Below, piece after piece: positions 17,796 to 42,282 of a stretch of 46,450 nt of DNA. The notes beneath the pieces were generated by a model. That model ran no database searches. It was not told the origin of the DNA and saw only the letters and a program-made list of their open reading frames with translations. This DNA is from Hymenobacteraceae bacterium. Its GTDB lineage: Bacteria; Bacteroidota; Bacteroidia; Cytophagales; Flexibacteraceae. Every line of letters begins with the position of its first letter. The first letter of the stretch is position 1. Position numbers and translations under genes: made by a program. The DNA is taken from positions 1 through 46,450 of the forward strand of contig CANHCT010000008.1 in the NCBI GenBank assembly GCA_947459175.1, in the 5' to 3' direction.

Positions 17796-20700
17796 TTGAA
17801 GCCGGGCCCCTCTGGTATTTTCAAGCGGGAAGGCGTATCTTTACATCCGGAATCCGAAAAACAACTTTTACAATTGTCCCAACAGGAGCCTTTGGTTTCG
17901 CTTCGTCCCCTGAAGCGCCTCATCAGGCTGGCGTTCTGGCTTGCGCTGAGCTTTTTCCTGCTTTTCGGGGTTCTTTCTCTTGCCCTTCGCACGCAGGCAG
18001 TTCAAACCTATGTGGTACAGCAATTAGCCGGTTGGGTTTCCGAAAAATTGGGGTTTCGCTGCACCATTGGAGGCTTTTATCTCGATTGGGTGGATTTTGC
18101 CCGCATCACAAAAGTAAAAATTGAAGACCGGAGCGGAAAACCCCTCATTGAAGTCGGGGTTCTAAAAGTAAACCTCAAGCTGAAGGCCTTGCTCGAAAGG
18201 AACATTCACCTCGATGCCGCCGATGCCTCCAACGGCTTGGTTATGATCCGGGTGGACAGAAAAACCGGAAAAAAAAACATTGTAGAATTTATTGATGCTA
18301 TCCAGGATTTGGTAGATGACGGTGATACCACCCGGTCACCCAATCCTCCCCGGTTTTCCATTGATAAAGTCAATCTGGAGTCTATGGCATTTGCGTACAT
18401 AGACGAAACCGAGTCCTCTCTTCCGGGTCAGTTTGATTATTACCACTTCCGGCTGGCCGGCATTAATGGAAAAGTGCGCAACTTTTGGCAAAGGCGTGAT
18501 ACCATTGGCCTGGATATAGAAAGCCTGACAGCCAAAGATGTGGCAACCGGGTTAAGGGTAAAAAGCCTGAGTTCCGGATTCCGGTACACCAAACATGATA
18601 TGGTTCTGTCAAACCTGAAAGCCAAAATAGGGGAGAGCTTTGTTTCTGATAGTCTGGTATTTAAGTATAAGAGTCCGGATGATTTTTCTGATTTCAATCA
18701 GAAAGTGGAAATGTCTGCCCGCCTGAGCAATTCTGTAATTTCAACCCAGGACCTGTCCTTTTTTGCCCCAAGCCTGAAAGACTGGTTTGAAACCTATGAA
18801 CTCAGCGGAAATTTCAACGGCACGGTGGATGACTTCCGGTTCAATCGCTTTCGGCTTCGTACAGGAAAGAACACTTTTCTGGCCGGCAACCTAAGTATGA
18901 AAGGTCTTCCTGAGGTGGATGAAACCTTTACTGACCTCCGCCTGAAATCTTCATTTGTAAACCCCGAAGACCTTAAATTTTATACCGGTAAGGCTGCCGC
19001 CGATGCACTGAATAATTTTGGAGTAATGGATATAAGCGGTTCATTTACAGGATTTTTCCGGAATTTCGTAACCCGCGGGAATATCAGGACGCATCAGGGT
19101 TTTGTGCAGGCAGACATGCAAATGGAATTGCCCGAAGATTCTCTGCAGCAAGCCCGGTACCGAGGGCATATCAAAACCAGCAATTTTGATTTGGGCAAAC
19201 TCATCGGACAGTCCGCTTATGTTCAGAAAATTGACATAGACGGCAGCTTTGAGGGAGAAGGATTTGACGTAAACAAAGCCAAACTCGACCTTGATGCCAC
19301 CATTCCAAGGATCGGAATTCTGGGCTACAACTATGTAAACCTGAAAACCAAAGGGCATTTTGAAAAAAAGAAATATGCCGGTTCTCTTTCTGTAAGAGAT
19401 CCGCACCTGATTTTTAATGTTACCGGCAAGGTAGACCTAACCAAGCGGCAGGAGATTGTGGATCTGGAAGCTCTGCTGGCCAAAGCCAACTTTTTGCAAC
19501 TCAAGCTCACCCCGTATCCTTTGGATATTTCCTCAGAGGCCGCCATGCATTTCAAAGGATTTGATTTCGACAACTTTCTGGGATCCATATTCTTGAAGAA
19601 TTTGAGGGTCTTGTATAAAGACGAGCGGATGGACCTCAATGAGGTTTCCCTGGAATCCCATGTTGAAAAGGGTGTCAAGAAACTGAATTTCAAATCTCCC
19701 CTCGCCAATGCCAGTCTTGAGGGGAGTTTCCGCTACCGCAAGTTTATTGAAGACAGCCGCGACCTGGTAGATGAGTACATCCGGCTAATCAGGAACAAAA
19801 CCGATTTCAACCGGAATGATTTTATTTCCCAACGGCGCAAGAATGCAGTGGAATATAAAATCAATGCCGACATCGACATCCTGAATCCCAATCCTTTTCT
19901 CGACCTGTTGGACCAGCCCATATCTGTGTCTGAAAATACCCGGATTAATGTTCAGATGCAGTTCGGAAAAACTGAAATGGTGATGATCAACACCCACATC
20001 GACAGCATCCGGATCAAGGACTATGCGCTGTACCAAACCGATATTGATTTGTCTTCGGTGAAAACCCTGGAGCGGGCAGATGTGTTGGCGGAGTTGTATG
20101 TATACTCTCAGCGGCAGGACTGGAATTCGCAAGTGGAAACCGAAGACCTTATGCTGGATGGGGTCTGGGAGGATGGAAAAATCAATTTTAAGTTATTGGC
20201 CGATGAGCAGCAGTCCAGTAACCTGGCAAGGATTTTCGGATCGGTTCATTTTCATCCGCAAACCACTGAAATTCAACTCGAGAACAGCTATTTGTCACTG
20301 GTAGACCGCATCTGGAAAATCAACAATGAAAACAAAATTGAAATTTCGGATACCGGTACTGTGCGGTTTGAAAATGTAGAGTTGGAAAATGAAAATCAGA
20401 ATCTCTCTGTTCGTGGGTTTCTGACCGGCAATCCGGAAGATACCCTGGAAATCAGGGCCTCAAATTTTGAAATCAGCACCCTCAGGCCCCTCACAAAACA
20501 GGATATCCGGGGCTTGGTGGATGCAAGGATTTTTATTACCAACCTCACAGACAGCCCGCTCTATGAAGGATTTCTGGATGTAGACAGCCTGGAGTACAAC
20601 CAGTTTCTCATAGGTGATTTTGCAGGGAAAGCCGATTGGAATCAGAACCAGAAACATCTTGACATAGAAGGAACCCTCAGCCGTGACCAGCAAAAAGTGG

Positions 20701-22451
20701 TCAGTCTGAAGGGCCATTTCGATCCTGGCGAATCGTCGCCCCTGTACCTGAAAGCAGCTGTTTCCCGACTCAACATTCAGTTTCTGAATATTTTTATCGG
20801 AAATTATGTCTCCAATCTCCGTGGTTTTGGAACCGGTGATGTATTGATCAGAGGCAGTTTTTCCAAACCCGTTCTCACCGGAACATTGCAGGTGTCCGAG
20901 GGTCAGGTTAAAATCAATTATCTCAATACAACCTACTTTTTCAATCATCCGGTAACCTTCCTGCCCAACGAGATCCATGCCGACGGCGTGGTATTGCTGG
21001 ATGAAAACGGTCAGGAAGCCAGGCTGGGCAGGGCAGCCCTCAGCCATCAGTTTTTTGATCGGTTTTTTGTAATGCTCGAGGGCAGGTTGCGGCAGTTTAC
21101 AGTTTTCAACCGGGTGCAGAAGCCCGGAGAAATTTATTACGGCACTGCCATGTGCTCAGGCGATTTGTTTATTCAGGGCAGCTTCAACGATATCTCCATC
21201 AAAGCCAATGCCATCACCAACAAGGGTACCCGGATTTTTATTCCGCTCGAAGGTTCCGCCAGCGAGAGCATCCGGGAAGAGTTTATCTCATTTCAAACCA
21301 AAAAAATCAGGGACGAAAGGAGCCGTGTGGATACCGTGGCCAGTGTAAAGCTCTCCGGAATCAAAATGGAATTTAATCTGGAGGTCACCGATGAGGCCTA
21401 CGGTGAAATCATTTTTGATAAAAAGGCGGGAGATATCATCCGGGCAAATGGTTCGGGTAAAATCAAAATGATCATCGATACCAAGGGCGAATTTTCGGTA
21501 ATCGGCCAGTATGTAATCAAGAAGGGAGACTACCACTTTACCACCTACAATCTGGTAAACAAGGATTTTGACATCAAGCCTGGAAGTACCATCACATGGA
21601 ACGGACCTGTTTTGGAAGGCAGCATGGATATTCTGGCTGAATACAACCTCAATGCTTCTCTTGCTCCTTTGGCTGCCAATGACCCCCAGATACAGGAAAG
21701 GCCCGAATCGAAAAGGAGGTATCCTGTGGTGGTGCGCATGCGGCTGACCGAGCAACTGTTGAAGCCCGATATCGGTCTTGACCTTGAAATAAAGGATTAT
21801 CCCCGCAATTCCGATCTCAATTATTATGTGCAGGCCTTTCAGTCGCGGGTTGCCACCGATGAGCAGGAACTCAACCGGCAGGTGTTCAGTCTCATGATTT
21901 TCAGGATGTTTGCTCCGATGGGTGATTTTGTTCAAACCTCCGGCATTTCCTATTCCAGTTTTAGTGATTTGGTTTCCAATCAGTTGAGCTCCTGGCTGAG
22001 CCAGTTTGATGAAAATCTGGAAGTGTCTGTGGATTTGAACGGCCTGAGCGGCAGTGCCTTGAGTAATTTTCAACTTCGCTTTTCCTATACCCTGCTGGAA
22101 GGCCGGCTAAGGCTCACCCGTGACGGAGGTTTTACCAACGCCCAAAACCAGACATCTGCCCTCAGTATTGCCGGTGATTGGTCTCTGGAGTATATGCTCT
22201 CCCGCGATGGAATTTTCCGGGTAAAAATGTTTCACAAAATCAATCAGAACCTGATTCTCTCCGGTCTGAACAACAACAACACCACGCAGGGAGCTTCGTT
22301 GCTTTATACCCAGAGCTTTAACAGGATTAGCGAAATTCTTCCCAAAAGGAGAAAGAAGAAAAACCAGTCTCCGCCCCGTAAAGAGGCACTGCCGCTTTAC
22401 AGGCAGGAAACGGCAAAGGGCGCCGAAATCCGGGACGGGAAACAGCGCTGA
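17796..22451 (+). CDS. TamB-like translocation/assembly module protein
   Basis: A very large envelope protein (1551 residues from the first possible start) of the TamB/DUF490 family, which bridges the periplasm as a long beta-helical groove for lipid transport or outer-membrane assembly. One membrane helix lies near residues 45-64. Long beta-strand repeats follow (GSFEGEGFDV, GSFRYRKF, GSFSKPVLTGTLQVSEGQV), and the DUF490 domain occupies the end (DWSLEYMLSRDGIFRVKMFHK and SGLNNNNTTQGASLLYTQSF, apart). The tail is Lys/Arg-rich. The start is unsettled: no ATG precedes the helix, and TTG codons occur at 17796, 17874 and 17892. The last has an AGGAG three bases upstream. No TamA/BamA-like gene is adjacent. 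Confidence 0.9.
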   Translation: MKPGPSGIFKREGVSLHPESEKQLLQLSQQEPLVSLRPLKRLIRLAFWLALSFFLLFGVLSLALRTQAVQTYVVQQLAGWVSEKLGFRCTIGGFYLDWVDFARITKVKIEDRSGKPLIEVGVLKVNLKLKALLERNIHLDAADASNGLVMIRVDRKTGKKNIVEFIDAIQDLVDDGDTTRSPNPPRFSIDKVNLESMAFAYIDETESSLPGQFDYYHFRLAGINGKVRNFWQRRDTIGLDIESLTAKDVATGLRVKSLSSGFRYTKHDMVLSNLKAKIGESFVSDSLVFKYKSPDDFSDFNQKVEMSARLSNSVISTQDLSFFAPSLKDWFETYELSGNFNGTVDDFRFNRFRLRTGKNTFLAGNLSMKGLPEVDETFTDLRLKSSFVNPEDLKFYTGKAAADALNNFGVMDISGSFTGFFRNFVTRGNIRTHQGFVQADMQMELPEDSLQQARYRGHIKTSNFDLGKLIGQSAYVQKIDIDGSFEGEGFDVNKAKLDLDATIPRIGILGYNYVNLKTKGHFEKKKYAGSLSVRDPHLIFNVTGKVDLTKRQEIVDLEALLAKANFLQLKLTPYPLDISSEAAMHFKGFDFDNFLGSIFLKNLRVLYKDERMDLNEVSLESHVEKGVKKLNFKSPLANASLEGSFRYRKFIEDSRDLVDEYIRLIRNKTDFNRNDFISQRRKNAVEYKINADIDILNPNPFLDLLDQPISVSENTRINVQMQFGKTEMVMINTHIDSIRIKDYALYQTDIDLSSVKTLERADVLAELYVYSQRQDWNSQVETEDLMLDGVWEDGKINFKLLADEQQSSNLARIFGSVHFHPQTTEIQLENSYLSLVDRIWKINNENKIEISDTGTVRFENVELENENQNLSVRGFLTGNPEDTLEIRASNFEISTLRPLTKQDIRGLVDARIFITNLTDSPLYEGFLDVDSLEYNQFLIGDFAGKADWNQNQKHLDIEGTLSRDQQKVVSLKGHFDPGESSPLYLKAAVSRLNIQFLNIFIGNYVSNLRGFGTGDVLIRGSFSKPVLTGTLQVSEGQVKINYLNTTYFFNHPVTFLPNEIHADGVVLLDENGQEARLGRAALSHQFFDRFFVMLEGRLRQFTVFNRVQKPGEIYYGTAMCSGDLFIQGSFNDISIKANAITNKGTRIFIPLEGSASESIREEFISFQTKKIRDERSRVDTVASVKLSGIKMEFNLEVTDEAYGEIIFDKKAGDIIRANGSGKIKMIIDTKGEFSVIGQYVIKKGDYHFTTYNLVNKDFDIKPGSTITWNGPVLEGSMDILAEYNLNASLAPLAANDPQIQERPESKRRYPVVVRMRLTEQLLKPDIGLDLEIKDYPRNSDLNYYVQAFQSRVATDEQELNRQVFSLMIFRMFAPMGDFVQTSGISYSSFSDLVSNQLSSWLSQFDENLEVSVDLNGLSGSALSNFQLRFSYTLLEGRLRLTRDGGFTNAQNQTSALSIAGDWSLEYMLSRDGIFRVKMFHKINQNLILSGLNNNNTTQGASLLYTQSFNRISEILPKRRKKKNQSPPRKEALPLYRQETAKGAEIRDGKQR

Positions 22452-31691: not shown

Positions 31692-33218
31692 TTATTTCTT
31701 TTTTGGAGCTGGCTTTTTGACAGATTTTTTCACTTTTCCGCTCTTTCCGTCACCAGGGCCTGTTTCGTTACCCATATTTTCCGGTTTGTATTCCAGTTTT
31801 AAGGGTCCCTTGTTATCAGGCAGCACATTGATTTCGCATCTGCGGTTCAGCTGACGGCCTTCGTTTGTGATATTGGTGGAGACAGGCAACTGCTTTCCAA
31901 AACCATGTGTCAGAATTCTTCTTTTTGATATGCCTTTGTTGATAAGGTACTGCTTGCACTCTTCTGAACGCTTTACAGACAAAATCAAGTTAACCAACTC
32001 TGTATCAATGCTATCTGCATGGCCTATTAACTCCACTCCGAAGGTAGGATTGGTCATCATGTAATCGAAAAGTTTATCCAGTCTTTCCCTTCCTTCCGGT
32101 CTCAGGTCGTACTTCGCAAAATCGAACAGCACATTGGAAAATTCTTTCACCACAATTCTTTGTCTTTTATTCAGCTCACGCTCCGCATCGGCCTGTGCTT
32201 TTGCTTCCTGTGCAGCGAGAGAAGCAGGTGAAATTCCAGGGGTGGCTCCGGGAGTCTGCACCAGATTGTCTCCTTTTTTCTTCTTGTCCTCCTGCCGCTT
32301 GAGGGCCTCTTTTAGATTCTTGAAGTGGGTGTAGTACAGATCGGTGTAGTTGTTTTCGGGATTTTCTTTAGCAAAATAGATGGTAGAGTCTACCTTATCA
32401 ATAAAGAAATAAGCATCAAATCCCTCACCGTTAAACAGGGGGCCCAGGTTCTCTGGTTTGGACCACTTGGTCCAGGAATTGTCCAGTCTTTTGGAGCGGA
32501 AAATATCTGCATCTCCCGAACCTTCATGGCTGTTGCTGGCAAAGTACAGCATCGAGTCTTCTTCCATGTAAAATGGAGAAATCTCGAAGCCTACGGTATT
32601 GATGGTATTGCCCAGATTGATGGGTTTGGAATAAGATCCGTCATCTTCCTTCAGGGTAATATACAAGTCCTCCCGGCCGAAAGAACCCTCTGATTTCATG
32701 GTCAGAATGATTCCTTTTTCATTGGCCAGCCAATATCCACCGAGATAACCTTTCTGGATTGTAAAATCTTTGATTTGCAAGGGCACAGGAAGAGACCATT
32801 TTCCGTCTGCACCCATGGTGGATACCGATATACCGGGATCCATCTTCTTTTTCAGGTATACATTGGAAATCAGGAGGCTTTTTCCATCCGAACTTACCCC
32901 GATGATGCCGTTGTTTTCCCGGTTGTTAACAGGCAGTCCCAGATTTTGGGGTGCAGACCAGGTGGTATCTCCGGTTTTTTTTGTCACCCAGATATCCTGC
33001 CCGGAATCTTTTCCTCCTTCATTTTTGGGGTTAAGTGAGCGAACAAAATACATGGTTTGCCCGTCTCGGGTGAGAATAGGCTGAATTTCCTCGAAGGTAT
33101 TGTTGATGGAGGTATCGAGTTTGTAAATTTGAAATTGTTTGGGCGGTTGAGCCAGGACCCCCATCGAAATGAGGCAAAAAGCCAAAACCCAATTTCTTTT
33201 CCTTGTACCTGAATTCAT
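31692..33218 (-). CDS. OmpA-family protein with PD40 beta-propeller region
   Basis: An exported protein of about 508 residues. A signal peptide (RKRNWVLAFCLISMGVLAQ) is followed by PD40/WD40-like propeller strands (for example QPILTRDGQTMYFVRSLN, ISPFYMEEDSMLYFASNS, GDADIFRSKRL). An Ala/Lys-rich linker then leads to a C-terminal OmpA peptidoglycan-binding domain (VLFDFAKYDLRPEGRERLD, ELIGHADSIDTE and a closing LNRRCEINVL), and the end is a Lys/Pro tail. The layout resembles PorE-like and other T9SS/gliding-associated OmpA proteins. Several ATGs (33248, 33242, 33218) are possible; 33218 gives the most normal signal peptide, while the first two would overlap the upstream stop. It is third in the adhesin operon. 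Confidence 0.88.
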   Translation of the reverse strand: MNSGTRKRNWVLAFCLISMGVLAQPPKQFQIYKLDTSINNTFEEIQPILTRDGQTMYFVRSLNPKNEGGKDSGQDIWVTKKTGDTTWSAPQNLGLPVNNRENNGIIGVSSDGKSLLISNVYLKKKMDPGISVSTMGADGKWSLPVPLQIKDFTIQKGYLGGYWLANEKGIILTMKSEGSFGREDLYITLKEDDGSYSKPINLGNTINTVGFEISPFYMEEDSMLYFASNSHEGSGDADIFRSKRLDNSWTKWSKPENLGPLFNGEGFDAYFFIDKVDSTIYFAKENPENNYTDLYYTHFKNLKEALKRQEDKKKKGDNLVQTPGATPGISPASLAAQEAKAQADAERELNKRQRIVVKEFSNVLFDFAKYDLRPEGRERLDKLFDYMMTNPTFGVELIGHADSIDTELVNLILSVKRSEECKQYLINKGISKRRILTHGFGKQLPVSTNITNEGRQLNRRCEINVLPDNKGPLKLEYKPENMGNETGPGDGKSGKVKKSVKKPAPKKK

Positions 33219-33241
33219 TTTTTCCAAACTTAAAATATTCA

Positions 33242-34240
33242 TTACCATACTTTTAAAGAGGAATTAGGCTTTTTATTATACAACCTGAGGCCGAGAACCA
33301 CTTCGTGGCTGCCATTACTTGAAAACTGTATATCGTTGGTGGCGAAATCAAATGCATAGGCCAGGTCTATCCAGTTCGACAAACTGAATCCCACCATACC
33401 AATAATCGCTGACTTATGCCTGTAGCTACCGCCTGCCCAGAATGTATTCTGATAGCGGATTTTTGCGCCGCCTTCCCAGGATAGGGGAGAGTTTTCAGTA
33501 AACCGGATAATTCCCACCGGCAGGATATCAAAATCCTGATCCAGAGGAATCGCATACGAAATGGTACCAAAATAATGGCGGAACAGATTGTTGTAGGCCA
33601 GATTCCGGTTCAGTTTTGCGAATGAAAAGTTATTGGCCACCATTTGTGTACTGCTGAAGCCAATCTGAAGCCGGTCTGAATAAAAGTAGATGCCGGATTG
33701 CAAGTCGGGCAGGGCCGAAAGATTCTGGCTGCCATTGAAGGCATCATCGCCCTTATCGCGGAGATTGACATTGTCAAGTCTGAAAAGATTTCCTCCCAAT
33801 CCCATACCGAATGCCAGATAATATTTTTGATTCAGGGGAAGGTGAATGGCATAGCCCACATTAAACTGGTTCCGGGTTATAGATCCGAACTTATCAGCAA
33901 GGAAAAATCCGCCGAGGCCGTGCCTGATTTTTTTAGGTGCCACATTTTTGAACTTGATGGTTGAGGCACCTCGCATCGGCAAAGACCCCAGTTCTTCTTT
34001 GTTCAAATCTTTTTGATTTATGGCACCATTCAGAGAAGCATACATAGTGGTAGGCCCGGGCATATTTACCCACTGCTTTCTGAAGCTGGTCCGCACATCA
34101 AGATGGTCCTCGATTCCTGCCAAGGCCGGATTGAATATGTATCCGTTGAGCAGATAGTTGCTAAAAAGGGTTTGTTGCTGAGCATGTGCCGACAGGCATC
34201 CAAAACCTATGAAAAACAGGATGATTAAGTTCTTTTTCAT
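33242..34240 (-). CDS. PorP/SprF-family type IX secretion partner protein
   Basis: Outer-membrane beta-barrel protein of 332 residues. It has the family's signal peptide and opening: KKNLIILFFIGFGCLSAHAQ, then LFSNYLLNGYIFNPALAG (the conserved Y-x-x-N...NPA-x-AG), RTSFRKQWVNMPGPTT and later LGGFFLADKFG. PorP/SprF proteins are dedicated partners that help T9SS cargo with type B C-terminal domains reach the cell surface. It directly follows the giant adhesin gene, whose stop overlaps an in-frame ATG at 34261 (TAATG). I prefer the ATG at 34240 because it opens the signal peptide, but the overlapping ATG would couple translation. Confidence 0.93.
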   Translation of the reverse strand: MKKNLIILFFIGFGCLSAHAQQQTLFSNYLLNGYIFNPALAGIEDHLDVRTSFRKQWVNMPGPTTMYASLNGAINQKDLNKEELGSLPMRGASTIKFKNVAPKKIRHGLGGFFLADKFGSITRNQFNVGYAIHLPLNQKYYLAFGMGLGGNLFRLDNVNLRDKGDDAFNGSQNLSALPDLQSGIYFYSDRLQIGFSSTQMVANNFSFAKLNRNLAYNNLFRHYFGTISYAIPLDQDFDILPVGIIRFTENSPLSWEGGAKIRYQNTFWAGGSYRHKSAIIGMVGFSLSNWIDLAYAFDFATNDIQFSSNGSHEVVLGLRLYNKKPNSSLKVW

Positions 34241-34260
34241 GTCTTTAGAATTAAAGCGCA

Positions 34261-37200
34261 TTATCTTACAAGGGTTAAGGATCCGGATTTAGGCTTCAGT
34301 CCTCCGCCCAGATCAATGATGTAGAAATACGCTCCCGGCGGTACTTCATCGCCTTTGTATTTTCCATCCCAGGGTACAGGATATCCTTTTCCGGATTCAT
34401 ACACCAGGTTGCCCCAGCGGTTGTATACCCTGACCATGGCTTCCGGATACTGCTGGATATTTTTAATGTTCCAGAAATCATTATTACCATCGTTATTAGG
34501 CGAGAATCCGTCAAAAATTTCAAAATCGCGGTCCACCCTGATTAAAGTATCTCCATTGTTTTTACAACCTTTTGCGGAGGTAATCTCTACAAAATAGCGG
34601 GTAGTCTCCTCTGGTTTGGCAGAAACAGTGGTACCCGAATTTGAACTCAGGGTTGACGCCGGAGACCAAAGGATAGACGAGCCGGGCAGGGTTTGTACGC
34701 TCAATACAGCCGGACCAAAAATTTCAATCACAGGCTTATCAACGGTAAGATTAACCGGAGGAACCGGATCAACCAGAATTTTTACAGAGTCCTTCTTTGT
34801 GCAGTTGCCCAATGAACCGGTGTAGGTGATGGTGACCTGTCCGGAAGCCGGAACCGAATTATCGTTGGAATTCCAGTTTCCAAGATTTGCATCGGTGATA
34901 CCGGGTCCAGACCAAACTCCTACGCTGTTATTGTTGGTCAACTTCAGCTGAATCAACCCTGTATTTTTACAGGTATCGAATGGTGCAGGCATGGTAAATA
35001 CAGGATTGGGATTTATTACAAGCGTTCTGCTGGCGCTTGCCGAACATAGGTTATTCTGAACAATCAGGTTATATGTAGCAGCAATTCCTGTGGTAAGCAC
35101 ATTTGGATTATTAGGTCTGAGCGTATCGGTATTGTTACGAAGCCAGATGGTCCGGTATGAGTTCGGGTTCACATAGGTGTAGGTTACCGAATCGCCTTCA
35201 CAAACATCGTTGGCCGTTGCCTGGAAAACCGGATCGGGGATGGCGTATCCTTTCAACCAGAGCGTGTCGGTAGCCACACAGGTTCCCAATACCTTGGTCA
35301 GGATTAGCGGATAAGTTCCTTCGCTGGTCAGGTTTGCCGGAGAAAGCACACCATTGGATGTTACGAGGCTGCCCGGACCCGACCACAGAGCATCGGCAGG
35401 TGTATAGGGCCGCACCTGATTCAGATTAATGCTTTCTCCGGGATAGCAAACCTTGAGGGTATCCCCGCCGGAAATATTCACAACCGGCGCCTGACCCTGA
35501 ATTACCGTGACAATCCGCGTAGACGGCAAGGCACAGAAGCCATTTCCGTTGATGATGATTTTGACCCGGTAAGTTCCGGCCTCACTTACACTCAGGGTAT
35601 CGTTATCTGAGTTTGGAATGGGCACACCATTGCGGCTCCACTCGTAACCTATTCCCGGTCCGGTTGTTCCGGATATCAATTTGATGATGTCACCCGGGCA
35701 AAGGACGGTATCGCCCTGAATGGAAATGAGGGAATTGATATTTTGGGATACAATCAGAACACGGCTGGCAGTATCGGCGCAGGTAAAATTGGTAGCAATA
35801 AAGCGCACCACATTGTTACCCAATGTGCCGGCAGCGGCATTTACCACCCCTCCGGCGGACACAAATGCAGCAGGCGTACTGCCGGCCGATTGCCAGCCTG
35901 TGCTCGTAAAGGGACCACTAATGGATGGGGTGGGCAATTGGAAAACCGGAGCTCCCTGACAAATTGTAGAATCTGCCGGCAAGTTGGCAATTTGAGGAGT
36001 CTGAGCCTGGATTACGGTTACCGCTTTGGTTGAAGGCAGGGCGCAAACTCCGTTTCCGTTGATGATGATTCTGACTCTGTAGATACCGGCCTGAATTACA
36101 GTTATGGTATCGTTGTCGGAACCCGGAATAGCAATGCCATTTCTGCTCCATTCATATCCCAAACCAGGGCCACTGGATCCGGCGACGAGCTTAACCATAT
36201 CGTTGGCGCAGAGCACGGTATCGCCCAAAATAGAGATATTGGAATTGATGTTTTCAGATACAAAGAAATTGCGGGTTGCTGTATCTGAGCAGGTTCCGTT
36301 GGTAACGATAAACCTGACCTGATTGTTGCCCGGAAGTCCGGAAGCAGGATTGATGACACCACCCGCAGATACAAATGCAGCAGGTGTACTTCCTACCGCC
36401 TGCCAGGAGGCACTGGTAAAGGTTCCCACCACGGAAGGGGCTGGTATCTGAAATACACCGGCACCCTGACAAATGGTAGAGTCGGGTCCGATATTGGCAA
36501 TCACCGGAGCCGGATTGGTAATGAGTGAAATTTGGTTGGATGGTCCGGAGTTACATCCATTGTTGCTCACCTGGAGGGTGTATATTCCCTGCAGTGTGGC
36601 AGACAAGGAGTCGTCAAATCCGATGGGTTGATTGTTCCTGAACCATGTGTAGGTAAGTCCGGGCGTATTTGCCTGTGAGGTAAATAAAGCAGATGCCCCC
36701 TGACAAATGGTCACCGGTGTAGTATTGGGCAGAATAACAGCATCAGGATTTTTGTAAACCCTGAAGGTAAAATCTTTGGATTCCGTGCAGCCATTCGGAC
36801 CGGGCACCTTGCTTGTGTAGGTAAGTGTGATAACCTGATCTGAGGTTATCAGAGAAGGATTGATCAGACCGGATTTGGTAATAAAGCCCGCAGGTGCTCC
36901 GGTAGCTGTCCATCCGTTCTCGGGAACTGAACCATCGAAGGCAGGAGAAAAGCCTGTGAGTTGAACACTGGTCTGGCTGGTGCAGGCAAAATCCGGACCT
37001 GTTCCGGCCACATTTACATTGGGTACAGCCCTGATGTCCACAATTTTTTGCTCCACGCCGATACAACCATTTGCATCGGTGTCGGTCAAAATCACACCAA
37101 TGTTGCCGGGGATGTAAATGGAAGGTTTTAAGGTATCGGTTTGAACGCCATCAATAAAAATGGAAGCACTTGGGCTGCATCTGCCGATGGTAACAGGTGG

Positions 37201-40200
37201 TTGGTTCTGGCAGATGGCCGAAGGTACATTTTGCAAGCAAACGAACGGATTGATATTGGTTGGACCTGTAATTCCGAATGATTGGAGGTCAGAACAACCG
37301 GTGGTGTTGTTGGTAAGCTCAATGGAGTAGATTCCAACAGCAAGATTGTTGACCTGAGCGCCTGTTCCCAGAATGGATCCAGACTGAACATTTCTCCAGG
37401 TAGTTTGAAAAGATGCCGGATTCAGGATATTTCTGGTTGCTGAACCATTGGAAGCACCACATTGGGTTACATCGGTGATATCGAGAGTAAATTGGGGCAA
37501 CTGATTCACCGTTACAGTTTTGGTATCGGTATTGGAGCAACCATTCAGCGTATAGCCCACAGAAACCAGAGAAGAGGTTATTCCGGGATCAGAGGCAATA
37601 TACAAGCTGTCATTTTCAACCTGATTGCCAACCCAGATGAGGCTAACTCCTAAAGGTTGAACAGCATTAAGAACCATGGTGTCGCCAAAACAAACCGACT
37701 GATTCGGACCAGCATCAACCACAGGTAATGCATTTATTTTCACCACCTTTTTACCGGTTCCCACGCAACCATTGACTGTAGCAGTGTAATAAACAGTATC
37801 GATGGCACCGCCCGGAAGTGAAGGATCAAAAGATTGAGGACTTCCCACAATCCGGTTAAAAAAAGATGTAAATACACCACTGGCAGCCGGTATTCCCGTC
37901 AGCAGTACAGGCGAGGCATTGGCACAGAGAGAATCAGGAAGCCCTGCTACCTGTACATCCAGGTTGTTAGGGCTGTTAATCAGTGCAGGGAATACGGATG
38001 AGCAACCGGTAACAGGGTTGTTTACCTTCACGGAATAAGCTCCCGGCAAAACATTGGCAAGGGTATCGGTTGTGCTGAGGGTATCCACTTGTCCCACTTT
38101 AAACCAGCGGTAAGTGAGATTGAGCCCTGCAGATCCTATCACCCATGCTTTTCCGTCGTTGGTAAGACAAGCTGATGCAGGATTTACTGCAGTACTGAAA
38201 TTCGGATTGGCCTTGATTTCAATGACTTTACGGTCGGTATTGGAGCATCCGTTTGAGGAATCTACCGTCAGGGTTACTGTGTCGGTACCTATGAAAGATC
38301 CTGAGGCATAGTTTCCTGAGGTGACTACTCTGGGAGAGCCGGACCAGTTACCGGGTGTAGGCAGGCCGGTATTCAGATTAACAGTAAGCGGTGAACAGGA
38401 AGACAAATCCGGACCGGCATCTGCCAATGGGATTTTCTTGATATTCACTATCCTTTGGTTGCTTATTTTGGAACAGCCGGACTTGGTAACCCTAACCGTG
38501 TAGGTACCTGTGGCAGTAACTTTAATCAGCGGATTAGTGAAAACACCTCCAACTGGTGACCCATTCCTGAACAATTCATAAAATTCTCCTGTTCCCAAAC
38601 CGTCATTAACCAAAAGGCGCACTGTATCTCCCTGACAGACATCAGAAGCTCCCTGCGCTATCAGGAATGCTGATGGTGAGGGACCTACAACGACTTTGAT
38701 ATTTTTTCTGGAAACACAGCCATTGGAATTGGTGCAGACATAAGTCAGAATGTATTCGCCGGGTGTGGCAGATCCAAAAATATTGCTGGGCACCGGGCTG
38801 CCGTTGTACAGCAATACACAATTGGTGGTAGGTGAAAGCCCGGTAATTTGCGTGTTTACACCCTGACAAATATTGAACACTGTATCTGTTGCAGTAATAA
38901 GAATGGTGGAATTAACATTCACTGTATCGGACAAGGCTTTACATCCGTTGGCTGCCACCACTTCTGCAAAGTACGAACCGGGGCTGGATACCACCAGAGT
39001 GGGGCCGGTAGCGGGCTGAGGTTGATTGGGAGTTCCGATTTTAAACCAATTGAAATTCAGGCCCAAACCGGTTGCTCCGATGGTAATCGAAATAGGTTGG
39101 CCCGCCTGGAGGCATGTGTCTGAAAGTGGTGGTGTAACCACGGGTGCCAAAGGAGCAGGCAATATATTTACATCAATGACGGATGAAAATACCGAACAGT
39201 TGGATGCATTTCTGATTCTGACCCTGTACTGACCGCTGGCAGTGGGAACATATGTTCTTTGTGTAGCACCCGAAATGGAATCGGTGCCAAACCACTGGAA
39301 GGTATAGCCGGCGAGGCTGTCAGCCGTCAGAGTGACGGGATTGTTGGAGCAGGGTTGCAGAATCCCGGATGGATTTACCCCGTTTGACGGCAAACCATTA
39401 AAGGAAACCACAACAGGCGTTGAATTTCCTTCACATGAAGAGGTAGTGGAGGCCTTTACGGTATAAGAACCGGCTTCTGTAACCAAAATGCTGTCCTGAT
39501 TTTGATTCGGAATGATGACCCCGTCTTTAAACCATTCGAAGAAATTTGCAGTCACCCCGTTGCTGATGTTGGCAGTGAGTTTTACCGGTACACCCTGACA
39601 TACTGTTGTGATCGGTTGCCTGCTGATGGCAACAACAGGGTTTTCGTTTACCACCAGCCGGAATGTATCTGTTGCCGTACAAGCTGCGAGGGTACGGCTA
39701 ATCACAAGCTCATTGGTTCCTGCAGCTGCGAGGGCCAGATTTACTACACCTGAGTTAGAAATTAAAGAAGATGGCGACCAAACTGCGGGTGGGGCCGGAG
39801 GTGAAAAGCCTGAGATGGTATAAGTGCCGGCACTACGGCAAATGGTATCAGACGACAGCGGCCCTACATTGACCACAGGCGATTCATTTACTCTTACCAC
39901 CAGAGATGTGGTTCCGGTACATCCGCCGGTGGTATCATAGCTGTACACTACAATATTAGGACCCAAATTGGCCAGTAGGGGGCAAAATTGATTTCCGCTT
40001 ACTCCTGAACCGGTAAATGTGCCGGAAGGAGAAACCGGACTTGCCACCATGGTTACGCAAGGATCAGATGAGCAATAATTGGCGGCCAATCCGGAAATAA
40101 CAGGCGTTGGAGCATTTGGGTCTGAAAGGCCAAACGCTCCTAACCTACGGCAGCCAGTGGAAGAATCTGTTACCACCACGGTGTAGGCTCCTGCACCCAG

Positions 40201-42282
40201 GTTGGTAATAGTTGGATCTGAAAGAGAATCAGCCCTGTTTATTGACCACTTTACCTTAAAGCCGGGTCCTGTAGTAATGCCCTGAAGGGTAGCAGAACCA
40301 TCGTCAATATTACAGGCAGAAGGATCAATGGTGGCGATTGTAAAAATCGGAGGAGCCGAATTAACAGTAATAACCGCAGTATCACTTCCTGCACAACCAT
40401 CCTGAGTAAAGGTATAAATGGCGTTGAATACACCGGGTCCGGACGAGGCTGGAACAAATGTTCCGTCAGATTGAATGCCGCTTGGTCCTGACCATGAACC
40501 GCCTGCAGGCGTACCGGAAAGCAAAATGGATTGATTGTTGGAGCAAAGCGTCGAATCAGGGCCTGCATTTACCACAGGAATCTGATTGATGGTGAGAGTA
40601 AATGAATCAACTCCGATACATCCGAAGGCATTGCTTACAGAGTATTTAAAAGTGTATACTCCGGGAGCCTGACCAGTGAAATCCAAAACATTTCCTGTTA
40701 TCAAAAACGGGCCGGACCATGTTCCTGTTGAAGGGAATGGGGTCAGATTGATTGGGGCATCGCCTACGCAGACTTTTCGGTTCGGTCCGGCTTCTGCATT
40801 CGGTTCGGGCAAAACTACTCCCCTTACCGCCACTCTGTCTCCCGGACAACCCAATGGCGACAACTGGGCGACATAAAACACTGTATCTCTGGTAATATTG
40901 AGACTCAGTACATTGCCGGTAAAGACCGGCGTTGTCGAGAACGGTGTGGCATACCAAACAAAAGTAGGACTTGCCAATGTTGAACTGGCCGACAAGTCAA
41001 CAATTCCGGATTGGCAAACCGTGTCGTTGATGGCGACAGGAGGTTGCGGCCTCGCAAAAATTTTAATACATTCACTTATATTGCTGGTATCGGCTGGTTG
41101 CGAAGAAATGATGCGGAATTTGTAACAGTTTCCACCTGTAATTCCGGCCGGTATTAGGGTATTGATGGTGTCGGCTTTATTTGATACAAGCGTACCCATG
41201 GGTGTTGGGTTGGTAAAATCTCCCAATGAATCAGACATCTGGAGTGAAAAAACATTCCCCGAAAGGAAGCTGCCAATGATGGTGTAAGGAACCCTGAAAA
41301 TGGAACCTGCACAGGCTGCGGTATCCAACGGAGGATCAATTTCTACTTCACCGCAAGCCCTGATGTCAAAACAGTCCTTGTCAGTAAATTTACAACGGCC
41401 GTCAATCAATTCCACACAAATTCTTGAACCTACTTTGGCGCTGTCAGCAGGTGTTAGGGTGAAAAGGGTGTCATTAATTCCCTGAGACAGGGTATCAATT
41501 ATTCCTCCGTATTCTCGGGTCCAAATGTAAGTGGGATTGGGTCCCGCTGTATCAGGTTTGGCAATAAACGAAATGGGTGTGTTTTCACATCCGCTGCTTC
41601 CCGGAGCTAATGTCAATCTTACAGTTGGTTTCTTTACTACTTTAATGGGAATAGAATTGGACCGTCCGGCTGCAAACTGGGCGCACTTGCTCTGCTTGGT
41701 AACCACCACCGATACAAAATCTCCGGCAACCAGCCCTGTAAGTGAAAATACCGAATCGATAGCCTCCAGTTTAGCTGTATCATTTTTACTCCATAATATA
41801 GTGTAACCAGTGCCTGCATTAATCAGAGAATCAATTCTGTAGGTAATGGTGTCATCCGGACAGTAAACCGGACGGATTGGGGGAACCTGAGAAATTACAA
41901 TCCTGGGAGCAGGGGAGTTGTCCACCGTGTCTATTTCGATGGTCTTTGCATTGGAAACCACATTGCCGCAACGGAGCCTAACGCAGTATTTTCCTCCTCT
42001 CAGAGTAAGCGGGATGCCCAAACAATTTCCGGCACTGCTCAAAGTTGTTGTAAAATCACAAGGTGCATTTGGATTAGGCAATCGTCTTGAGAGCTCAATT
42101 CTCATACACGAGGGGGTCACACAACTGGAGGGTGTGGCTGTGTAAGAAACACACAATGTTGTACCAACACAAACCACAGGAGGAGTAATCCCCAATTCAA
42201 TTTGACAACCTGCTGACTGAGCTTTGGCAATCTGAAAATAGCCGGCAAAAAGTATGAAGGCTAACAGAAAAATTTTTCTCAT
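34261..42282 (-). CDS. Giant SprB-like surface adhesin with gliding-motility C-terminal domain
   Basis: An 8-kb gene for a secreted protein of 2673 residues. A signal peptide (1-21, ending QIAKA) is followed by many 70-90 residue Ig/PKD-like beta modules, each with a paired Cys and motifs such as VNAGPDSTLCSNN, DAGPNQSVCFGD and EAGPNRKVCVGD. Three modules fit the SprB repeat (Cys657, Cys1372, Cys1608, each in x-C-x4-(D/N)G-(S/K)-A). Residues about 1924-2263 are a 170-residue tandem duplication. The last 87 residues are the gliding-motility-associated type B T9SS sorting domain (FSPNNDGNNDFWNIKNI, VYNRWGNLVYES, PPGAYFYII). The sorting domain and the PorP/SprF partner downstream indicate surface display; a role in adhesion or gliding is inferred from these families. 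A promoter candidate lies 115 bp upstream. Confidence 0.93.
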   Translation of the reverse strand: MRKIFLLAFILFAGYFQIAKAQSAGCQIELGITPPVVCVGTTLCVSYTATPSSCVTPSCMRIELSRRLPNPNAPCDFTTTLSSAGNCLGIPLTLRGGKYCVRLRCGNVVSNAKTIEIDTVDNSPAPRIVISQVPPIRPVYCPDDTITYRIDSLINAGTGYTILWSKNDTAKLEAIDSVFSLTGLVAGDFVSVVVTKQSKCAQFAAGRSNSIPIKVVKKPTVRLTLAPGSSGCENTPISFIAKPDTAGPNPTYIWTREYGGIIDTLSQGINDTLFTLTPADSAKVGSRICVELIDGRCKFTDKDCFDIRACGEVEIDPPLDTAACAGSIFRVPYTIIGSFLSGNVFSLQMSDSLGDFTNPTPMGTLVSNKADTINTLIPAGITGGNCYKFRIISSQPADTSNISECIKIFARPQPPVAINDTVCQSGIVDLSASSTLASPTFVWYATPFSTTPVFTGNVLSLNITRDTVFYVAQLSPLGCPGDRVAVRGVVLPEPNAEAGPNRKVCVGDAPINLTPFPSTGTWSGPFLITGNVLDFTGQAPGVYTFKYSVSNAFGCIGVDSFTLTINQIPVVNAGPDSTLCSNNQSILLSGTPAGGSWSGPSGIQSDGTFVPASSGPGVFNAIYTFTQDGCAGSDTAVITVNSAPPIFTIATIDPSACNIDDGSATLQGITTGPGFKVKWSINRADSLSDPTITNLGAGAYTVVVTDSSTGCRRLGAFGLSDPNAPTPVISGLAANYCSSDPCVTMVASPVSPSGTFTGSGVSGNQFCPLLANLGPNIVVYSYDTTGGCTGTTSLVVRVNESPVVNVGPLSSDTICRSAGTYTISGFSPPAPPAVWSPSSLISNSGVVNLALAAAGTNELVISRTLAACTATDTFRLVVNENPVVAISRQPITTVCQGVPVKLTANISNGVTANFFEWFKDGVIIPNQNQDSILVTEAGSYTVKASTTSSCEGNSTPVVVSFNGLPSNGVNPSGILQPCSNNPVTLTADSLAGYTFQWFGTDSISGATQRTYVPTASGQYRVRIRNASNCSVFSSVIDVNILPAPLAPVVTPPLSDTCLQAGQPISITIGATGLGLNFNWFKIGTPNQPQPATGPTLVVSSPGSYFAEVVAANGCKALSDTVNVNSTILITATDTVFNICQGVNTQITGLSPTTNCVLLYNGSPVPSNIFGSATPGEYILTYVCTNSNGCVSRKNIKVVVGPSPSAFLIAQGASDVCQGDTVRLLVNDGLGTGEFYELFRNGSPVGGVFTNPLIKVTATGTYTVRVTKSGCSKISNQRIVNIKKIPLADAGPDLSSCSPLTVNLNTGLPTPGNWSGSPRVVTSGNYASGSFIGTDTVTLTVDSSNGCSNTDRKVIEIKANPNFSTAVNPASACLTNDGKAWVIGSAGLNLTYRWFKVGQVDTLSTTDTLANVLPGAYSVKVNNPVTGCSSVFPALINSPNNLDVQVAGLPDSLCANASPVLLTGIPAASGVFTSFFNRIVGSPQSFDPSLPGGAIDTVYYTATVNGCVGTGKKVVKINALPVVDAGPNQSVCFGDTMVLNAVQPLGVSLIWVGNQVENDSLYIASDPGITSSLVSVGYTLNGCSNTDTKTVTVNQLPQFTLDITDVTQCGASNGSATRNILNPASFQTTWRNVQSGSILGTGAQVNNLAVGIYSIELTNNTTGCSDLQSFGITGPTNINPFVCLQNVPSAICQNQPPVTIGRCSPSASIFIDGVQTDTLKPSIYIPGNIGVILTDTDANGCIGVEQKIVDIRAVPNVNVAGTGPDFACTSQTSVQLTGFSPAFDGSVPENGWTATGAPAGFITKSGLINPSLITSDQVITLTYTSKVPGPNGCTESKDFTFRVYKNPDAVILPNTTPVTICQGASALFTSQANTPGLTYTWFRNNQPIGFDDSLSATLQGIYTLQVSNNGCNSGPSNQISLITNPAPVIANIGPDSTICQGAGVFQIPAPSVVGTFTSASWQAVGSTPAAFVSAGGVINPASGLPGNNQVRFIVTNGTCSDTATRNFFVSENINSNISILGDTVLCANDMVKLVAGSSGPGLGYEWSRNGIAIPGSDNDTITVIQAGIYRVRIIINGNGVCALPSTKAVTVIQAQTPQIANLPADSTICQGAPVFQLPTPSISGPFTSTGWQSAGSTPAAFVSAGGVVNAAAGTLGNNVVRFIATNFTCADTASRVLIVSQNINSLISIQGDTVLCPGDIIKLISGTTGPGIGYEWSRNGVPIPNSDNDTLSVSEAGTYRVKIIINGNGFCALPSTRIVTVIQGQAPVVNISGGDTLKVCYPGESINLNQVRPYTPADALWSGPGSLVTSNGVLSPANLTSEGTYPLILTKVLGTCVATDTLWLKGYAIPDPVFQATANDVCEGDSVTYTYVNPNSYRTIWLRNNTDTLRPNNPNVLTTGIAATYNLIVQNNLCSASASRTLVINPNPVFTMPAPFDTCKNTGLIQLKLTNNNSVGVWSGPGITDANLGNWNSNDNSVPASGQVTITYTGSLGNCTKKDSVKILVDPVPPVNLTVDKPVIEIFGPAVLSVQTLPGSSILWSPASTLSSNSGTTVSAKPEETTRYFVEITSAKGCKNNGDTLIRVDRDFEIFDGFSPNNDGNNDFWNIKNIQQYPEAMVRVYNRWGNLVYESGKGYPVPWDGKYKGDEVPPGAYFYIIDLGGGLKPKSGSLTLVR
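35486..36505 (-). repeat. In-gene tandem duplication, 2 x 510 bp (170 residues)
   Basis: Two adjacent 510-bp units inside the adhesin gene line up without indels. For example TTTCCGTTGATGATGATT recurs at 35543 and 36053, and ACAAATGCAGCAGG at 35861 and 36371. In protein, both copies hold DSTICQG, GSTPAAFVSAGGV, GDTVLC, GYEWSRNG, IIINGNG and CALPST. Roughly two thirds of residues match by eye, so the duplication is not recent. Edges are approximate. Confidence 0.85.

What the first reader, a model, noticed from the sequence alone, without database searches (positions are those of the whole stretch)
31692..42282. Three-gene T9SS surface system: giant SprB-like adhesin, PorP/SprF partner and OmpA/PD40 anchor
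The adhesin ends in an 87-residue gliding-motility type B sorting domain and contains three SprB-type repeats. The next gene is a PorP/SprF partner with an overlapping TAATG junction, then an OmpA/PD40 protein. Seen directly: the domains and gene order. Known: type B T9SS cargo needs a cognate PorP-like partner. Inferred: this is a dedicated adhesin/export/anchor module, possibly a gliding adhesin. The adhesin's module arrangement, which mixes Ig/PKD modules with only three SprB repeats, may be distinct from known SprB proteins.
Basis: partly seen in the sequence, partly recalled or inferred. Interest (0 to 1): 0.62.

Follow-up and report, generated by a model that had tools for sequence, protein, structure and literature searches.

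The report
Surface adhesin with dedicated wall anchor
Three neighbouring genes of a freshwater Cytophagales bacterium appear to make a giant surface protein, its outer-membrane carrier and a cell-wall anchor; such gene sets are already known, but comparing about 260 carriers suggests that bacteria choose between riding the gliding track and being pinned to the cell wall.

Summary
Window 31692-42282 (minus strand) encodes a 2,673-aa Ig-like protein ending in a type B T9SS sorting domain, a PorP/SprF carrier and a PD40/OmpA protein. The genome has the T9SS core (SprA, GldK-N, PorV) and the gliding lipoproteins GldJ and GldD. Two details fail: no Pfam SprB repeat is detectable in this protein or its orthologs, and the TAATG overlap is probably not the carrier's true start. 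The three genes lie in the same order in all four congeners and in a further genus. This is a new member of a known kind: Flavobacterium johnsoniae has five or six such operons, read as statically anchored adhesins. The "possible gliding adhesin" reading is disfavoured: the carrier lacks the C-tail cysteine that bonds SprF to the GldK track, and a PorE-like gene follows. Across 175 carriers with a type B gene upstream, C-tail cysteine and a PorE-like/OmpA partner almost never coexist (2, against 32 cysteine-only and 111 partner-only). That pattern, and single-chain PorP-OmpA fusions, I did not find reported. It is strong in raw counts but not significant after correction for shared ancestry. 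All function is inferred.

The parts
34261..42282 (-). Giant secreted surface protein (2,673 aa): N-terminal signal-peptide-like stretch, array of Ig_7/Ig_2/PKD-like modules, C-terminal type B T9SS sorting domain
   Evidence: ORF; PF19081, PF13895, PF00801, PF13585; TIGR04131 61.5 bits; orthologs 49-57% identical in three congeners
34264..34512 (-). Type B (gliding-motility type) C-terminal sorting domain of the adhesin
   Evidence: Best TIGR04131 match of the genome, 68.4 bits; 62-66% identical in congeners against 45-54% for the rest of the protein
33242..34240 (-). PorP/SprF-family outer-membrane carrier (ORF opens at 34261; conserved start probably the ATG at 34240); C-tail LYNKKPNSSLKVW without cysteine
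   Evidence: TIGR03519 215.8 bits, PF11751; 60-68% identical in congeners; start inferred from congener starts
31692..33248 (-). PorE-like periplasmic anchor: PD40 beta-propeller plus OmpA-type peptidoglycan-binding domain
   Evidence: PD40 and OmpA; PorE profile 126.8 bits, below its cut-off of 600; solved PorE OmpA domain 6TOP E 7e-13; D412/N420/R427 invariant in A1 and in the same 8/7 spacing as PorE D576/N584/R591

Best explanation
A statically anchored T9SS type B adhesin system. The giant Ig-like protein is exported through the SprA translocon, its C-terminal type B domain is taken over by the dedicated PorP/SprF carrier and stays bound to it, and the carrier is held from the periplasm by the PD40/OmpA protein, whose OmpA domain grips peptidoglycan. 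The result is a long adhesin pinned to the cell wall rather than one pulled along the gliding track. Shown here: the domains, the conserved gene order, the peptidoglycan-binding triad, the missing C-tail cysteine and the T9SS core in the genome. Inferred from relatives: export, carrier binding, anchoring, adhesion.
For: Type B domain, carrier and PD40/OmpA domains. Same three-gene order in 4 of 4 congeners and one other genus of the family, and in named Cytophagales and Flavobacteriales MAGs. SprA, GldK-N, PorV, GldJ and GldD present. PorE's three PG-contacting residues kept with identical spacing. Published: PorE-PorP-PG1035 complex (PMC9143113); type B substrate, SprF-like carrier and PorE homolog operons with static foci for Fjoh_3952 (PMC12618676). 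Carrier has no C-tail Cys, which SprF needs for the GldK track link (PMC12635249). In 175 carriers with a type B gene upstream, Cys and anchor coexist in 2. Ten carriers are fused to OmpA domains in one chain, one of them in this genome.
Against: No experiment on these proteins. Gene 3 lacks PorE's TPR part and shows no lipobox, so attachment at the outer membrane would rest on the carrier alone. The anticorrelation of Cys and anchor is not significant once pairs are taken on independent branches (median p 0.375). One carrier (L134) has both a C-tail Cys and a PorE-like gene.
Confidence: 0.8

Rival explanations
1. A gliding adhesin of SprB type: the carrier links to the moving GldJ/K/N track and the PorE-like protein has another role.
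For: Genome has GldJ, GldD and GldK-N, so gliding is plausible; the window carrier sits in an 80-support clade that also holds 13 Cys-tailed carriers; SprF can touch the track weakly without the Cys (PMC12635249).
Against: No C-tail Cys; PorE-like gene adjacent; no SprB repeats; in F. johnsoniae mobile substrates are not encoded with PorE-like genes (PMC12618676). This genome has other carriers with Cys tails (PCPKF, PCPGL) that fit the gliding role better.
Confidence: 0.1
2. The three genes are a structural or envelope-integrity unit (surface layer or OM-wall tether) with no adhesive function; the giant protein is a spacer or coat.
For: Gene 3 also resembles CHU_0125, an OmpA-like envelope-integrity protein (164.7 bits, far below its cut-off of 620); Ig-like arrays carry no identifiable binding domain.
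Against: Type B substrates studied so far are known or predicted adhesins (PMC12618676); the protein changes faster than its carrier and anchor, as expected of an exposed surface protein.
Confidence: 0.1

Closest known systems
F. johnsoniae Fjoh_3952 / Fjoh_3951 / Fjoh_3950 operon (PMC12618676)
   Same: Type B substrate, then SprF-like carrier, then PorE-like gene; the substrate gives static foci
   Different: Not compared by sequence here; another order of Bacteroidota (Flavobacteriales); CTD/carrier pairs are specific
P. gingivalis PG1035-PorP-PorE complex (PMC9143113)
   Same: Same three protein kinds, shown to bind each other
   Different: PorE has TPR, CRD and a lipid anchor; here gene 3 has PD40 and OmpA only, and the three genes form one unit
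F. johnsoniae SprB/SprF (PMC12635249, PMC9143113)
   Same: Type B substrate with its own downstream PorP-family carrier
   Different: SprF carries a Cys-X-Cys C-tail bonded to GldK and no PorE-like neighbour; here no C-tail Cys, a PorE-like neighbour, and no SprB repeats

Membership tests
T9SS type B substrate with dedicated PorP/SprF carrier | Type B C-terminal sorting domain (TIGR04131) at the very end | tested here: met
   61.5 bits over 35, residues 2592-2673 of 2673
T9SS type B substrate with dedicated PorP/SprF carrier | PorP/SprF-family gene directly downstream | tested here: met
   TIGR03519 215.8 bits; order kept in five other genomes
T9SS type B substrate with dedicated PorP/SprF carrier | T9SS core genes in the genome | tested here: met
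   SprA (split over two contigs), GldM (9), GldK, L, N (20), PorV family (30); SprE and SprT not searched
T9SS type B substrate with dedicated PorP/SprF carrier | Secretion depends on this carrier | not testable with these tools
   needs deletion or co-expression
SprB gliding adhesin | SprB repeats (PF13573) | tested here: not met
   no match in protein, segments or orthologs; none above cut-off in the genome (10)
SprB gliding adhesin | Carrier C-tail cysteine(s) that link to GldK | tested here: not met
   tail LYNKKPNSSLKVW; absent in all congeners (47)
SprB gliding adhesin | Helical movement on the cell | not testable with these tools
   needs live imaging
PorE | PD40 propeller and OmpA domain with the DAP-binding D/N/R triad | tested here: met
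PorE | TPR and CRD domains, lipoprotein signal, NCBIfam PorE cut-off | tested here: not met
   126.8 bits against 600, best stretch is profile 154-377; only PD40 and OmpA by Pfam; no lipobox seen in the sequence. Hence PorE-like, not PorE

The most novel reading that the evidence does not exclude
PorP/SprF carriers obey an either/or rule: a C-tail cysteine commits the adhesin to the moving GldK track, and its absence together with a PorE-like or fused OmpA domain commits it to the cell wall; lineages have switched between the two, and the carrier's tail alone predicts whether a type B adhesin moves or stays.
Probability: 0.5. Interest if true: 0.6.

Novelty: new member of a known kind. Interest (0 to 1): 0.4.

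Why it matters
The module itself is one more of a published kind. What it led to is a simple sequence rule that joins two 2025 papers: the disulfide link of SprF to the track (PMC12635249) and the static PorE-linked type B substrates (PMC12618676). If true, gliding adhesins could be told from static ones in any Bacteroidota genome, and the rule can be tested with single cysteine changes. Single-chain PorP-OmpA fusions are genetic support for the proposed carrier-anchor contact.

Tried and rejected
SprB repeats: PF13573 searched on the protein, on the three candidate segments, on the orthologs and on the genome; nothing. Long direct DNA repeats in the adhesin gene: none of 60 bases or more. Operon signals: promoter-like and terminator-like counts equal the shuffles. 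Relatives of the carrier among solved structures: none. The phylogenetic pair test of the either/or rule is underpowered (6 pairs on supported branches). Clustering at 40% identity by single linkage gives p 0.03 in the order set and p 1 in the small second set.

Full report
What is there. Three genes on the minus strand, in the order adhesin (34261-42282, 2,673 aa), PorP/SprF carrier (33242-34261, 339 aa) and PD40/OmpA protein (31692-33248, 518 aa). The adhesin ends in a type B T9SS sorting domain (TIGR04131, 61.5 bits, cut-off 35; PF13585, 82.2 bits) and is otherwise an array of Ig_7, Ig_2 and PKD-like modules. It is the best TIGR04131 match among 12 over-cut-off matches in the genome. The carrier is a clear PorP/SprF member (215.8 bits, cut-off 90.55). 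The third protein has a PD40 region and an OmpA domain.

The 'three SprB-type repeats' are not detectable by the family's own model, in the protein, in the segments cut out alone, in four orthologs, or above cut-off anywhere in the genome; the resemblance is at best remote. The TAATG at the first junction is real as letters, but in all four congeners the carrier starts 19-20 bp after the adhesin stop, which corresponds to the ATG at 34240 here, so the overlap is probably incidental.

Genome context. SprA (split over two contigs), GldM, GldK, GldL and GldN in one cluster with a PorP, PorV, GldJ in its short form (575.6 bits, cut-off 382.9) and GldD are present. SprE, SprT, GldB and GldH were not searched. 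The nearest named relatives of the PD40/OmpA protein are environmental MAGs labelled Cytophagaceae or Spirosoma, then Cesiribacteraceae and Cyclobacteriaceae, so the window is most likely from a Cytophagales bacterium; 'freshwater' is inferred from the source names of those MAGs (pond and lake-type samples).

Conservation. The three genes are kept in the same order in all four congeners found (adhesin truncated by the contig end in one) and in one other genus of the family. PorE-like identity is 70-74%, carrier 62-68%, type B domain 62-66%, the rest of the adhesin 45-54% (congeners). A second full trio lies on contig 1 of the same genome (L004), and six of eight carriers over the cut-off follow a type B gene directly.

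The third protein. It resembles PorE (126.8 bits, far below the PorE cut-off of 600) over the propeller, with the OmpA domain matching the solved PorE domain 6TOP. PorE's three side chains that hold the DAP of peptidoglycan (D576, N584, R591) correspond to D412, N420 and R427 with the same 8- and 7-residue spacing, and all are invariant in the five-species alignment. It lacks PorE's TPR part and I see no lipobox, so it is PorE-like, not PorE.

What is known. A PorE-PorP-PG1035 complex was shown in P. [quoted passage not shown] johnsoniae sit next to porE-like genes, unlike sprF; the authors postulated that mobile type B proteins use the carrier alone while non-mobile ones are tied to the wall through PorE-like proteins (PMC9143113). 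In 2025 Fjoh_3952, encoded with a carrier and a PorE-like protein, gave only static foci (PMC12618676). The same month SprF was shown to be disulfide-bonded to GldK through a C-tail Cys-X-Cys motif needed for sustained movement but not for export (PMC12635249). The window module is a new member of the first, static, kind.

An either/or pattern. The window carrier's C-tail (LYNKKPNSSLKVW) has no Cys. I classified carriers by C-tail Cys and by a PD40/OmpA gene within 150 bp downstream or OmpA fused in the same chain. In the first set (mostly the order), among 109 carriers with a type B gene upstream: Cys and anchor 2, Cys only 25, anchor only 65, neither 17 (Fisher p 2e-11). In one of the two exceptions (L077) the Cys lies 18 residues from the end, in front of an ITPRQF tail of the anchor class. 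With the same profiles and cut-offs applied unchanged, carriers from outside the order gave 0, 7, 46, 13 (p 1e-4). These p-values ignore ancestry. Taking one vote per 50%-identity cluster gives p 1e-4 in the first set and 0.08 in the second. On a tree of 175 carriers there are 10 changes of the Cys and 21 of the anchor state, but only 6 independent pairs on supported branches; the anchor goes the opposite way in 3.2 and the same way in 0.6 on average, not significant. The window carrier sits in a clade of 25 (support 80) with 13 Cys-only and 8 anchor-only carriers, so the two states lie close together on the tree. Within this genome, the Cys-tailed carriers (contigs 4, 10, 88, 113) have no anchor gene, and the anchor-linked ones (window, contig 1, contig 97) have no C-tail Cys. 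The sample favours high-scoring carriers, because only the best matches are listed by the search.

Fusions. On contig 97 of this genome one 799-aa chain holds a PorP/SprF barrel and two OmpA domains, following a type B gene. Nine more such chains were flagged in relatives, and many longer frames look alike. A natural fusion of carrier and peptidoglycan-binding domain supports the carrier-anchor contact. I did not find either the fusions or the either/or rule in the papers searched; the library lacks most subscription journals, so absence there is weak evidence.

Verdict. Known kind, well supported; mechanism most likely static wall anchoring of a type B adhesin (confidence 0.8). The broader rule is a lead that needs a proper comparative test and one or two cysteine swaps.

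Noticed in passing
L007:1451-3850 (contig 97 of the same genome); also L085-L093: Single-chain fusions of a PorP/SprF barrel with one or two OmpA domains; the ones at L007, L087, L088 and L090-L093 directly follow a type B CTD gene.
   Followed up: partly
L004:1-3479 (contig 1 of the same genome): Second complete trio: type B CTD protein, PorP/SprF carrier (tail RLVESGTKILRPSMW, no Cys) and PD40/OmpA protein.
   Followed up: partly
L003:6153-7196, L005:3301-4347, L006:8307-9365: Carriers of the same genome ending in PCP-(K/G/S)-(F/L): a single Cys near the end rather than SprF's Cys-X-Cys; candidates for track-linked carriers in Cytophagales.
   Followed up: partly
L134:2499-3575: The one clear exception: carrier with a C-tail Cys (TTGCKPSYVW) and a PD40/OmpA gene 40 bp downstream.
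   Followed up: no
L116, L110, L075: Type B-linked carriers with long His/Gly/Asn-rich C-tails (HFNNHxNTRGHGHRP...) and neither Cys nor anchor gene; a possible third way of attachment.
   Followed up: no
17796-22451: 1,551-aa TamB-like protein (PF04357, 145.8 bits).
   Followed up: no
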